Assembly (NCBI GenBank): GCA_002839415.1
Contig: PGXZ01000009.1
Span: 1-50,534 of the forward strand
Source: Candidatus Saccharibacteria bacterium HGW-Saccharibacteria-1
GTDB lineage: Bacteria; Patescibacteriota; Saccharimonadia; Saccharimonadales; Saccharimonadaceae
Direction of reading: 5' to 3'
Length of the DNA stretch: 50,534 nt
Shown: positions 21,004 to 49,978 of the stretch, piece by piece
Numbering within the stretch: the first letter of the stretch is position 1
Layout: every line of letters begins with the position of its first letter
Notes under the pieces: model-generated
The model's database searches: none
What the model saw: the letters and a program-made list of their open reading frames with translations, nothing else
Told to the model about the DNA's origin: nothing
Position numbers and translations under genes: made by a program

Positions 21004-21051
21004 ATGGAAATTAAGCTACTGGATTTAGTAAGGTGTAATTATTATGGGTAG
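21004..21051 (+). CDS. Upstream short ORF (15 residues)
   Basis: ATG at 21004 to TAG at 21049-21051 encodes MEIKLLDLVRCNYYG. The stop lies past the ATG of the kinase/CYTH gene (the two overlap by 8 bases, ATGGGTAG), and the AAGGTG ribosome-binding site for that gene lies inside the ORF. With the -10 box 7 bases before it, the ORF would be translated from the very 5' end of the mRNA and could couple or regulate the downstream gene. It is short enough that chance cannot be excluded. Confidence 0.4.
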   Translation: MEIKLLDLVRCNYYG

Positions 21052-22273
21052 ATCATCAATTTCTACTAAATATGCGGCTAGGGCAGAACGTGGTGATTTT
21101 ATCCCTGAATATAATCTTGAAGATGGCCTTGATAAACTAAGCCAGCTTATAAATATAGCTTTATCGCGACACGGCGGGGTAGTGCTGGTTAAAGTTGCTG
21201 GTGGTTCGGCTTCCGGCAAAACTAGCGCGGTGGCGGATAAAATAAAAAATACTTTTGGTGAATTGGCGGTTATTGTTTCGATGGATGATTATTATTTTGG
21301 TAGTAAATATTTAAAACAGGAGGCTAAAAAGGGTAATATTATCAACTGGGATCAGCCCGAGGCTTTAAATATTGAACTTCTAGGTGAACATTTAAACCTC
21401 TTAAGGAAGGGTGAGTCAATAAACAAACCTATCTACGGATTTAATATTGACCCAATGTCTAAGTTTGAAACAGTAAAACCACACAAGATAATTATTCTTG
21501 AGGGCTTGTTTGCTTTGAACGATAAATTGATTGACGATAAAGATATCAAAGCTTTCGTAGATGTAAGTGTCCATGGCAGGGTTTTGCGAAGGATACTTCG
21601 TGACGTCAATAGAACTGGCCAGGGTCCACATGAAATTTTGAAATATTTTTCTGACGTAGTCGAGCCAATGCATCAAAAGTATGTCCAAAGTACCAGAAAA
21701 AATGCCGATATAATTATTAAAAATGAATATGATCCAAATATTGAGTTTGTTGAGGTCGGAGCTAATGATGTTCAATTGAAATTTAAGCTAAAAAGCAACT
21801 CTAACGTTCTAGGCGGGTTAGCTGTTAAAAGTCTAGGGTCGGTAATCCAGCAAGATTATTATTGCAAACCCAAGGATAATAAGCCGGCTAGAGTGGATGA
21901 AATAGTAAGAGTCCGTGAAGAAAATGGACATGTTTGGATGACGTACAAAGGTCCGATTATTAAGTCAAAATATCAAAAGCGATTAAAGCTTGAATTTGAG
22001 ATCGACAGAGAAACGGCCGACTCCTTTCTAGTAATTTATGATAATCAAAAAGGTAAGTTAATTAAAAAGACACGACTATTTTACAACTTAGATGGCGTGC
22101 CTTTTGTAATAGATTCGGTTATCAAAGTCGAAAATGGGATTGAATCTAACTTAGGTTTTTTCGTTGAGATAAAATTGAATAATAACTATTCAAAACAAAA
22201 AGTAGGCGCCTTATTGAATAAATTAGGATTGAAAGATATATCGCCAATCAAACAATCTTATTCTGAAATGTAA
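21044..22273 (+). CDS. Uridine kinase-like P-loop domain fused to a CYTH domain
   Basis: The 409 residues form two domains. Residues about 40-230 are a uridine kinase/phosphoribulokinase-type P-loop NTPase: Walker A GGSASGKTS (about 53), MDDYYFG, NWDQPEALN and ILEGLFALND. Residues about 235-405 form a CYTH/triphosphate-tunnel domain: VDEIVRVREENGHVWMTYKG, KKTRLFYNLDGVPF and LGFFVEIKL. The CYTH entry signature ExExK is altered to QLKFK, so both metal-binding glutamates are missing. The same domain pair occurs in plant TTM1/TTM2. It may bind or process a nucleotide or polyphosphate; the substrate is unknown. Confidence 0.85.
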   Translation: MGRSSISTKYAARAERGDFIPEYNLEDGLDKLSQLINIALSRHGGVVLVKVAGGSASGKTSAVADKIKNTFGELAVIVSMDDYYFGSKYLKQEAKKGNIINWDQPEALNIELLGEHLNLLRKGESINKPIYGFNIDPMSKFETVKPHKIIILEGLFALNDKLIDDKDIKAFVDVSVHGRVLRRILRDVNRTGQGPHEILKYFSDVVEPMHQKYVQSTRKNADIIIKNEYDPNIEFVEVGANDVQLKFKLKSNSNVLGGLAVKSLGSVIQQDYYCKPKDNKPARVDEIVRVREENGHVWMTYKGPIIKSKYQKRLKLEFEIDRETADSFLVIYDNQKGKLIKKTRLFYNLDGVPFVIDSVIKVENGIESNLGFFVEIKLNNNYSKQKVGALLNKLGLKDISPIKQSYSEM

Positions 22274-22388: not shown

Positions 22389-22474
22389 GTTACTACTTAG
22401 AATATCAAAATGAAGCCTAGGAAGCAAGAATGTGATATTATATTAAGTGAGCGATGATGTAATCTAACTAATTA

Positions 22475-22636
22475 TTGAGCTCCGCGGGTATAGTGATGTG
22501 CGAAACGTTGCTTTATAAGAGTCTGTACAACTAATGTGGTACAGAAAGTCCGGTGGAACCGCCCGTTATAAATGGGTCCGAGACATGCGATAAATAGATT
22601 TAATTATATTTTAAATTTAGACATCGCATGTTTTTA
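22475..22636 (+). promoter_or_regulatory. T-box-like tRNA-sensing leader of thrS
   Basis: In order: a hairpin at 22492-22512 (possible short stem I), a hairpin CTGTAC/GTACAG at 22523-22544 (stem III position), then a canonical antiterminator. Its A1 arms GTC-CGG (22548-22553) and CCG-A-GAC (22578-22584) flank the 7-base bulge TGGAACC (22554-22560) and the A2 helix GCCC/GGGT. The bulge matches the UGGNACC T-box motif, and N = A pairs with U73 of tRNA-Thr. A competing terminator, ACATGCGA (22583-22590) with TCGCATGT (22624-22631) and TTTTTATTT, overlaps the A1 3' arm. Uncharged tRNA-Thr should favour read-through. The specifier codon is uncertain; ACG at 22505 is the only Thr codon in the first hairpin. 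Confidence 0.78.
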
Positions 22637-22659
22637 TTTAATTTAAAAAAGGAGTGAAT

Positions 22660-24471
22660 ATGAACGAAGACAAACTACATATAATGCGACATAGCTTGGC
22701 CCATATTACCGCTGCAGCCGTTCAGCGTATTTGGCCTGATGCTAAATTCGGGGTTGGACCAGTTATTGACAATGGTTTTTATTACGATATCGACCTTGGT
22801 GAAAAGAAGATTTCTGAAGCTAATTTCGCAAAAATTGAAAAAGCTATTCGTGGAATTATTGAATATGGTGATGATTTTACAAAGATTGAAATGCCAATTG
22901 ACGAGGCTATTGCTTGGGCAAAAGATAACAATCAGCCATATAAAGAAGAATTATTGAATGATTTAAAACGTTCAGGCACTACAATCGCCAAGGACATTAG
23001 TGTCGATGAGCTGGGATTATCAACGGATGCTCAATCTGTAATCGAGAATGTAACTTTTTATAAAAACGGTAATTTTATGGACTTATGCCGTGGTCCGCAC
23101 ATTGCTAACACAAAAGAAGTTGGCGTCTTTAAATTGATGCGGATTGCCGGTGCGTATTGGCGCGGCAAAGAAACTAATCCTCAAATGCAACGTTTATACG
23201 GCGTAGCTTTTGAGACTCAGGTTGAGATGGACGCTTATCTTGAACGACTTGAACAGGCGAAATTGCGCGACCATCGTAAATTAGGCAAAGAACTTGACAT
23301 TTATACAACATCGCAGCTAGTTGGGTCTGGTTTGCCAATGTTTACGCCTCGCGGAACTGTTCTTCGCGAAGTATTATCTGGTTACTCTAACCAAATTAGA
23401 ATTGGATACGGTTTTGAAAAAGTTTGGACGCCTAATATAACAAAAACTGATCTTTATGAGAAATCTGGACATTGGGCGAAATTTGGCGATGAACTATTTT
23501 TGGTAGCTAGCCAAGAAACAGACGATAAAATGGCCCTAAAACCAATGAACTGTCCACATCACTCGCAAATTTATGCCAGTCGTCCACGCAGTTATCGCGA
23601 CTTGCCGGTTAGGTACCTAGAAACAACCACAGTTTATCGCGATGAAAAGACGGGTGAGCTAGGTGGACTGGATCGAGTTAGGGCAATCACCCAAGACGAC
23701 AGTCATGTATTTTGCCAACCCGAACAGGTCGAGCAAGAAATTAGTAATTTAATGGCAACCGCAAATGAGCTATATTCAACAATGGCGATGAAATTAAGAG
23801 TTCGTTTGTCTTATCGTGATGATAGTGATGGTTATTTAGGCGACATCTCATTATGGGAGTCAGCCCAAGCCCAATTAAAAGCAGCTGTAATCGCCAACAA
23901 GCTTGATTATTTTGAACAAGAGGGTGAAGCGGCATTTTACGGTCCTAAAATTGATTTCATGGCAACCGATGCGATTGGTCGTGAACATCAAGTTGCGACC
24001 GTTCAGCTAGATTTCGTGCAGCCAAGCCGTTTTGAACTTCAATATACCGATAATGAAGGCAATGCCCAAACGCCGGTCATGATTCACTGTGCGGTTCTTG
24101 GTTCAATCGAGCGATTTCTGAGTGTATTTATCGAACACACTGGCGGATGGTTTCCGTTTTGGACGGCTCCGGAGCAGGTTCGTATCTTGACTATCAACGA
24201 CACTATATCTGATTATGTAGATGAGGTTAAGAATATATTTAATAAAATTGTTTTAATGAAACCAATTAAATACAACGAACTTCGATTTACTGTCGATGAT
24301 CGTAACGAATCGCTTGGCAAAAAAATTCGCGAGGCTACTAGCTGGAAGATACCTGTTCAAATAATTGTAGGTCCAAAAGACAAAGAAGCTCGCGAGGTCA
24401 GTGTTCGTACGCAAACTGACGAGATAAAAGTAAAATTAGATGATTTGGCGGCGTATATCCAAAACCTATAA
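22660..24471 (+). CDS. thrS: Threonyl-tRNA synthetase
   Basis: It charges tRNA-Thr. The 603 residues begin directly in the N2 editing domain (HSLAH near residue 11, DLCRGPH near 143), so the N-terminal TGS domain of most bacterial ThrRS is missing. The class II core follows, with MNCPHHSQIY, YRDEKTGELGGLDRVRAITQDD and FYGPKIDF, then the anticodon-binding domain. AAGGAG at 22648-22653 fits the ATG at 22660; a GTG at 22654 overlaps that site and is less likely. The upstream leader looks like a T-box. The next two genes may be read with it. Confidence 0.96.
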   Translation: MNEDKLHIMRHSLAHITAAAVQRIWPDAKFGVGPVIDNGFYYDIDLGEKKISEANFAKIEKAIRGIIEYGDDFTKIEMPIDEAIAWAKDNNQPYKEELLNDLKRSGTTIAKDISVDELGLSTDAQSVIENVTFYKNGNFMDLCRGPHIANTKEVGVFKLMRIAGAYWRGKETNPQMQRLYGVAFETQVEMDAYLERLEQAKLRDHRKLGKELDIYTTSQLVGSGLPMFTPRGTVLREVLSGYSNQIRIGYGFEKVWTPNITKTDLYEKSGHWAKFGDELFLVASQETDDKMALKPMNCPHHSQIYASRPRSYRDLPVRYLETTTVYRDEKTGELGGLDRVRAITQDDSHVFCQPEQVEQEISNLMATANELYSTMAMKLRVRLSYRDDSDGYLGDISLWESAQAQLKAAVIANKLDYFEQEGEAAFYGPKIDFMATDAIGREHQVATVQLDFVQPSRFELQYTDNEGNAQTPVMIHCAVLGSIERFLSVFIEHTGGWFPFWTAPEQVRILTINDTISDYVDEVKNIFNKIVLMKPIKYNELRFTVDDRNESLGKKIREATSWKIPVQIIVGPKDKEAREVSVRTQTDEIKVKLDDLAAYIQNL

Positions 24472-46729: not shown

Positions 46730-46736
46730 GATGCAT

Positions 46737-49928
<3,192 letters not shown>

Positions 49929-49978
49929 ATGTCCTTATCATTGATGTTAATGCTTGCATTAACAGAGGTGATAGGGTA

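What the first reader, a model, noticed from the sequence alone, without database searches (positions are those of the whole stretch)
22475..22636. T-box-like tRNA-Thr sensor ahead of thrS in a Saccharibacteria-type genome
The antiterminator with bulge UGGAACC, its A1 and A2 helices, and a mutually exclusive U-tailed terminator are all visible. The variable bulge base A matches U73 of the tRNA-Thr in this window. The 5' part is much shorter than a classical stem I, more like the ultrashort stem I forms of Actinobacteria. T-boxes are best known in Firmicutes and Actinobacteria; I do not recall one described for this phylum, which I cannot check here.
Basis: partly seen in the sequence, partly recalled or inferred. 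Interest (0 to 1): 0.8.

Follow-up and report, generated by a model that had tools for sequence, protein, structure and literature searches.

The report
Minimal tRNA-Thr sensing switch in Saccharibacteria
The leader in front of the threonyl-tRNA synthetase gene of this Saccharibacteria (CPR) genome is a real but strongly reduced T-box, an RNA switch that most likely reads uncharged threonine tRNA to decide whether the gene is transcribed, in a group of bacteria for which I found no earlier description of T-boxes.

Summary
The T-box is real. It spans 22449-22584, with a U-tailed hairpin at 22580-22639, so it starts 26 nt upstream of the reported start. Stem I is an ultrashort K-turn hairpin whose 7-nt apical loop (CUAACUA) carries ACU, a Thr codon. 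In 65 thrS leaders from Saccharibacteria the loop triplet is ACC 53, ACU 7, ACG 5. The bulge UGGA matches U73 of all three tRNA-Thr of this genome. ileS leaders carry AUC and UGGU instead. A covariance model built without the window finds it at 95.5 bits (E 1e-19). Rfam's T-box model scores only 30.9 bits (cut-off 93), so standard annotation misses it. All 65 leaders end in a U-tailed hairpin, so control is most likely transcriptional. This combination is unusual: transcriptional, yet without the long stem I tip and without stem II. "Mutually exclusive terminator" is only partly right: in most leaders, including the window, A1 shares one nucleotide with the hairpin and four more with its U-tract contacts. 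In 16 of 27 Ile T-boxes, including this genome's second T-box, the terminator consumes stem III and encloses the antiterminator. Stem III and the aminoacyl-sensing G-U pair come and go together. No experiment supports any of this yet.

The parts
22436..22441 (+). -10 promoter hexamer (TATTAT); transcription would start at about the first base of stem I
   Evidence: Sequence, plus conservation: 56 of 65 leaders have a hexamer at least 5/6 like TATAAT in the 20 nt before stem I, 47 of them ending 6-7 nt before it, against 18 of 65 in a control slice. A strict consensus scan found no promoter here.
22449..22482 (+). Ultrashort stem I: basal helix GAGC/GCUC (22449-22452/22479-22482), K-turn (GAU bulge 22453-22455, GA 22456-22457 opposite GA 22477-22478), upper helix 22458-22463/22471-22476
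   Evidence: All 8 stem I pairs counted have changes on both sides, 98% of cells paired
22467..22469 (+). Specifier codon ACU (Thr) in the 7-nt apical loop CUAACUA (22464-22470)
   Evidence: 65 of 65 relatives (window included) carry AC[C 53/U 7/G 5] at this place; A and C are invariant in the independent MAFFT alignment
22483..22512 (+). Stem IIA/B pseudoknot: CGC 22483-22485 with GCG 22500-22502; second helix 22492-22499 with 22505-22512
   Evidence: CGU pairs with ACG or GCG, CGC never occurs with ACG, one UGU/ACA; helix counts
22517..22547 (+). Stem III with flanking purine motif: AAGAG 22517-22521, helix UCUGUAC/GUACAGA 22522-22528/22539-22545, AA 22546-22547
   Evidence: Sequence. Matches the RRRxG-stem III-AA motif given in PMC7583486
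22548..22584 (+). Antiterminator: A1 22548-22553/22578-22584 (bulged A22581), bulge UGGAACC 22554-22560, A2 22561-22567/22571-22577 with basal G22561-U22577 wobble
22580..22639 (+). Intrinsic terminator: GAGACAUGCGAU 22580-22591 with AUCGCAUGUUUU 22623-22634, inner AU-rich hairpin, tract UUUUUAUUU 22631-22639
   Evidence: Folding; a U-tailed hairpin in 65 of 65 thrS leaders; covariation
22650..22654 (+). Ribosome-binding site AGGAG, outside the hairpin
   Evidence: Sequence
22660..24471 (+). thrS, threonyl-tRNA synthetase (regulated gene)
   Evidence: TIGR00418, 592 bits
18467..18542 (+). tRNA-Thr (CGU), discriminator U73; the GGU and UGU tRNA-Thr elsewhere in the genome also have U73

Best explanation
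The thrS leader is a transcriptional T-box. The nascent RNA begins with a hairpin that offers the codon ACU to the anticodon of tRNA-Thr (most likely the GGU isoacceptor), held by a K-turn and an adjacent IIA/B pseudoknot. Uncharged tRNA-Thr then pairs its 3' UCCA end with UGGA in the antiterminator bulge and stabilises helix A1, whose 3' strand GAGAC would otherwise complete the base of the downstream terminator and its contacts with the U tract, so thrS is transcribed. Charged Thr-tRNA cannot make that contact and transcription stops at 22631-22639. Shown by comparison: architecture, codon identity, discriminator match, covariation, and a terminator in all relatives that keep the leader. Inferred: tRNA binding, aminoacylation sensing, and that locking only the hairpin base is enough to prevent termination.
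For: Independent covariance model: 95.5 bits, E 1e-19, sole hit in the window; present in 56 of 101 family and 68 of 149 order genomes. Structure counts: 93.3% of cells paired, 22 of 30 pairs changed on both sides, covariation 0.450 against 0.231 in shuffles (0 of 500 as high) and at most 0.123 in slid controls. Loop codon synonymous in 65 of 65. Two tRNA contacts switch together between gene classes: ACN with UGGA ahead of thrS (tRNA-Thr N73 = U), AUC with UGGU ahead of ileS operons (tRNA-Ile N73 = A). In a search for UGGNACC with N free upstream of 80 thrS, the T-box copy was always UGGA. U-tailed hairpin in 65 of 65. Promoter placed at the start of stem I.
Against: Rfam T-box score far below the curated cut-off (30.9 against 93). 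No long stem I and no stem II, which the literature considers important for tRNA affinity (PMC7583486). Antiterminator and terminator core can coexist in folding calculations. The specifier search used a pattern that required AC, although an alignment made without it shows the same. No expression or binding data exist.
Confidence: 0.88

Rival explanations
1. Translational T-box, as in Actinobacteria with ultrashort stem I: the leader controls ribosome access rather than transcription.
For: Ultrashort stem I without the elbow-binding tip is typical of translational T-boxes (PMC7583486); at least one other CPR T-box lacks a U tract (L036).
Against: All 65 thrS leaders have a hairpin followed directly by a U tract. 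The ribosome-binding site of thrS lies downstream of that tract, outside the hairpin.
Confidence: 0.05
2. Autoregulation by ThrRS protein binding a tRNA-like operator, as in E. coli thrS, rather than tRNA sensing.
For: The gene is thrS and the leader has anticodon-arm-sized hairpins.
Against: The loop carries a Thr codon rather than a Thr anticodon. The 7-nt bulge with an NCCA complement tracks the discriminator base, and the same architecture sits ahead of ileS with Ile-specific letters.
Confidence: 0.03
3. The leader is a decaying T-box: it still binds tRNA but no longer switches efficiently, and the hairpin is a mostly constitutive weak terminator.
For: Small antiterminator-terminator overlap; stem III missing in 46 of 65 relatives; T-box absent from thrS in 12 compared genomes scattered over the tree.
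Against: Strong covariation of the structural elements and invariance of the tRNA contacts. A 5-nt overlap of A1 with the terminator foot is itself kept in 59 of 65. The window copy keeps stem III and the G-U sensor pair.
Confidence: 0.1

Closest known systems
Actinobacterial ileS T-box (Mycobacterium, Nocardia), ultrashort stem I
   Same: Specifier in the apical loop of a short K-turn hairpin, IIA/B pseudoknot, antiterminator-like A1/A2 with UGGN bulge
   Different: Those regulate translation, carry stem II with an S-turn, and read tRNA-Ile; this one ends in a transcription terminator, has no stem II and reads tRNA-Thr
Classical transcriptional T-box of Firmicutes (RF00230; thrS/thrZ of Bacillus)
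   Same: tRNA-Thr specificity, UGGA bulge, terminator, thrS downstream, stem III with purine motif and G-U wobble
   Different: Classical stem I is long with an elbow-binding tip, usually followed by stem II; the terminator 5' arm comprises the A1/A2 3' strands, here only up to 5 nt of it
glyQS T-box
   Same: No stem II; transcriptional
   Different: glyQS has a long stem I and no IIA/B pseudoknot (own knowledge and PMC7583486); here stem I is ultrashort and IIA/B is present
Long-stem-I T-boxes of other CPR lineages (L033-L062)
   Same: Same GTDB phylum, aminoacyl-tRNA synthetase genes often downstream
   Different: Long 5' region and classical terminators; 13 of 380 genomes exceed the Rfam cut-off, none of the 101 family genomes does

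Membership tests
T-box riboswitch | Specifier codon in a stem I loop matching the downstream amino acid | tested here: met
   ACU in window; ACC/ACU/ACG in 65 of 65 thrS leaders; AUC in ileS leaders
T-box riboswitch | 7-nt bulge UGGNACC with N complementary to the discriminator base | tested here: met
   UGGA with U73 in all three tRNA-Thr; UGGU with A73 of tRNA-Ile in ileS class
T-box riboswitch | Antiterminator helices A1 and A2 around the bulge | tested here: met
   A2 covaries at all 5 pairs; A1 98% paired though mostly invariant within the clade, with different paired sequences in other clades
T-box riboswitch | K-turn at the base of stem I | tested here: met
   3-nt bulge and GA opposite GA, invariant or at least 90% conserved; by sequence only
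T-box riboswitch | Stem IIA/B pseudoknot (found in most T-boxes, not in glyQS) | tested here: met
   Covariation of CGY with RCG and of the second helix
T-box riboswitch | Stem III with RRRxG and AA flanks, and G-U wobble at the base of A2 | tested here: met
   Met in the window; stem III absent in 46 of 65 relatives, none of which has G-U (labels corrected by eye)
T-box riboswitch | Curated Rfam RF00230 gathering score | tested here: not met
   30.9 bits against 93, though RF00230 is the best family at E 2.3e-5. The cut-off is an annotation threshold, not a biological feature: of 5 well-known control genomes with T-box matches only 2 have one over it
Classical (long stem I) transcriptional T-box | Distal stem I module binding the tRNA elbow | tested here: not met
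   Stem I is 34 nt with a 7-nt loop
Classical (long stem I) transcriptional T-box | Stem II with S-turn | tested here: not met
   Stem I is followed directly by IIA/B in thrS leaders
Classical (long stem I) transcriptional T-box | Terminator 5' arm formed by A1/A2 3' strands, mutually exclusive with antiterminator | tested here: inconclusive
   5-nt overlap in 59 of 65, but 1 nt in the hairpin proper in 38; coexistence is energetically allowed
Actinobacterial translational T-box | Sequesters the ribosome-binding site, no terminator | tested here: not met
   U-tailed terminator in 65 of 65; RBS of the window outside the hairpin
T-box riboswitch | Expression responds to uncharged cognate tRNA | not testable with these tools
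   Needs in vitro transcription or a reporter

The most novel reading that the evidence does not exclude
Saccharibacteria run T-boxes on a different switching logic from the textbook strand swap. In the Ile class the terminator competes with stem III and folds around an intact antiterminator; in the Thr class a 34-nt stem I plus pseudoknot, with neither elbow-binding tip nor stem II, suffices for transcriptional control, and many members lack both stem III and the G-U aminoacyl sensor, implying another way of telling charged from uncharged tRNA.
Probability: 0.5. Interest if true: 0.75.

Novelty: new variant of a known kind. Interest (0 to 1): 0.62.

Why it matters
It extends tRNA-sensing riboswitches to Saccharibacteria, tiny host-dependent CPR bacteria for which I found no T-box description in the held open literature, and which standard Rfam thresholds miss. 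It goes against the rule that transcriptional T-boxes need a long stem I, so it points to a lower size limit for a working tRNA decoder. The repeated joint gain or loss of stem III and the G-U wobble gives a natural experiment on how T-boxes sense aminoacylation. The leader could also serve as an amino-acid-responsive control element in a phylum with few genetic tools.

Tried and rejected
Rfam scan at curated thresholds found no T-box in the window; the permissive scan did. MAFFT plus RNAalifold alone did not recover the IIA/B second helix or A1; I checked these with a structure of my own. First automatic stem III calls had errors (spanning the pseudoknot, or missing mismatched hairpins) and were corrected by eye: L079, L090, L099, L106, L115 set to absent; L089, L112, L133 to present. 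RNAfold's minimum-energy pairing of UCCGCGGG with CCGGUGGA as a tRNA-free off state was considered but not adopted, because both strands are too conserved to test. A strict sigma-70 scan found no promoter although a -10 position is conserved. Literature searches for T-box with Saccharibacteria, TM7, Patescibacteria or CPR returned nothing; subscription journals and the contents of TBDB could not be checked.

Full report
What is there. The Rfam T-box model is the best family for this stretch but scores 30.9 bits, far below its cut-off of 93, so the default scan lists nothing. The Rfam alignment showed that the element begins near 22445, upstream of the reported start. Read by hand and by comparison, the leader runs: stem I 22449-22482, IIA/B pseudoknot 22483-22512, purine string AAGAG and stem III 22517-22547, antiterminator 22548-22584, terminator 22580-22639, RBS 22650-22654, thrS from 22660 (TIGR00418, 592 bits).

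Host. A scan of GTDB genomes with this ThrS returned 80 loci; most record titles name Saccharibacteria, Saccharimonadia or Patescibacteria, and the rest say only 'bacterium'. The nearest ThrS is 84% identical. The genome has 1.10 Mb in 30 contigs.

Conservation. Most of the 80 thrS loci have UGGNACC 76-217 nt before the gene, and the T-box copy is always UGGA. A few more have UGGAACA. Sixty-five leaders, the window included, have enough sequence to locate stem I. All 65 have a 7-nt apical loop with AC followed by C (53), U (7) or G (5), that is, synonymous Thr codons. The search pattern required AC, but in a MAFFT alignment made without that rule the A and C are invariant in all 39 rows. All three tRNA-Thr genes of the genome (GGU, UGU, CGU) have U73, and tRNA-Ile(GAU) has A73.

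Covariation. On 39 leaders without the window, my structure has 93.3% of cells paired, 22 of 30 pairs changed on both sides and a covariation score of 0.450, against 0.231 in shuffles (0 of 500 as high) and at most 0.123 when partners are slid. The shuffle control does not remove relatedness. The first pseudoknot helix is CGU with ACG (17) or GCG (10) and CGC with GCG (7); CGC with ACG never occurs, and one leader has UGU with ACA. A model built from these 39 sequences finds the window at 95.5 bits, E 1e-19, as its only hit, and hits 56 of 101 genomes of the family and 68 of 149 of the order. RF00230 itself hits 32 of 101 family genomes, none over its cut-off, and 127 of 380 across the phylum, 13 over it.

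Second T-box. The same genome has another at G000:C9:21380-21549, ahead of a GNAT-type gene followed by ileS (TIGR00392, 757 bits). Its loop carries AUC and its bulge is UGGU. In relatives the same class stands before ileS or before small genes, some of them with ileS next. So codon and bulge change together with the synthetase, which is the strongest argument that the two sites read one tRNA.

Transcription or translation. All 65 thrS leaders have a hairpin followed at once by a U tract, and the window's RBS is outside it. A -10-like hexamer sits at a nearly fixed place before stem I in 56 of 65, 47 of them 6-7 nt away. I therefore infer transcription attenuation. [quoted passage not shown] The thrS leaders have neither the long tip nor stem II.

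How it switches. A1's 3' strand (GAGAC in the window) is the foot of the terminator with a 5-nt overlap in 59 of 65 leaders, but in 38 only one of those bases pairs inside the hairpin and four pair with the U tract; in 5 all five pair with hairpin bases. For the window, antiterminator and terminator core fit together at -37.1 kcal/mol, against -39.5 for the terminator without A1 and -27.0 for the antiterminator with the terminator blocked. My best reading is that tRNA-locked A1 prevents the hairpin foot from closing into the U tract. This step is inferred.

Ile class. In 16 of 27 Ile T-boxes of the family the terminator's 5' arm is the 3' strand of stem III, upstream of the bulge; about 8 use the 5' strand of A2, and 3 use the classical A1 3' strand (classes assigned by inspection). 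Minimum-energy folds place the antiterminator inside the terminator in these 16. Arm complementarity averages 26.1 for real pairs, 16.9 for swapped pairs and 12.2 for shuffled arms. In 24 T-boxes of other CPR lineages with a U tract the 5' arm is never upstream of the bulge. In those 16 Ile T-boxes stem III rather than A1/A2 is then the competitor of the terminator, a departure from the rule that the 3' strands of A1 and A2 form the terminator's 5' strand (PMC7583486).

Stem III and the aminoacyl sensor. Among 65 thrS leaders (labels corrected by eye), those with stem III have a G-U pair at the base of A2 in 16 of 19; those without it never do (0 of 46; 28 G-C, 18 U-A). On a ThrS tree stem III changes at least 11 times, and in 6 of 7 independent contrasts on well-supported branches the G-U pair changes the same way, never the opposite way (sign test p 0.031). 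The review assigns sensing of 3'-aminoacyl groups to that wobble pair and calls stem III indispensable, so the stem III-less leaders raise a testable question. The window copy keeps both.

Novelty. I found no held paper joining T-boxes with Saccharibacteria, TM7, Patescibacteria or CPR. TBDB ran its class II model on Actinobacteria genomes and on known class I hits with truncated stem I (PMC7778990). Since some CPR T-boxes pass Rfam's cut-off, bare occurrence in CPR is probably already in databases. What looks new is the reduced transcriptional form in Saccharibacteria and its terminator designs. I file it as a T-box and as a new variant of that kind.

Noticed in passing
L086, L087, L088, L091, L093, L094, L124 (and L069, close relative of the window), upstream of thrS: Where thrS has no T-box, a -10-like element often sits directly before the start codon, suggesting a leaderless thrS mRNA, in most with a tRNA-Val gene still upstream as in the window.
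   Followed up: partly
L001 1501-1760 (G000:C9:21380 onward), and L005, L006, L007, L010, L012, L016, L018, L019, L022-L024, L026, L029, L030, L032: Ile T-boxes whose terminator uses stem III as 5' arm and encloses the antiterminator; about 8 others use the A2 5' strand (CCCGCCC with GGGCGGG).
   Followed up: yes
thrS terminators of L126, L130, L133, L134, L138, L142; also L121 and L137: A recurring loop motif like UUGCGAGA in the terminator hairpins of one Saccharibacteria clade.
   Followed up: no
window 46736-49931: 23S rRNA match is 3196 nt for a 2925-position model, so an insertion may be present, as is common in CPR rRNA genes.
   Followed up: no
window 21044-22273: Protein with an N-terminal uridine-kinase-like domain and a C-terminal class IV adenylate cyclase (CYTH)-like domain.
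   Followed up: no
L036 (other CPR lineage, around 1677): T-box with the letters AGGAG of a possible ribosome-binding site in the downstream hairpin and no U tract, so possibly a translational T-box in another CPR lineage.
   Followed up: no
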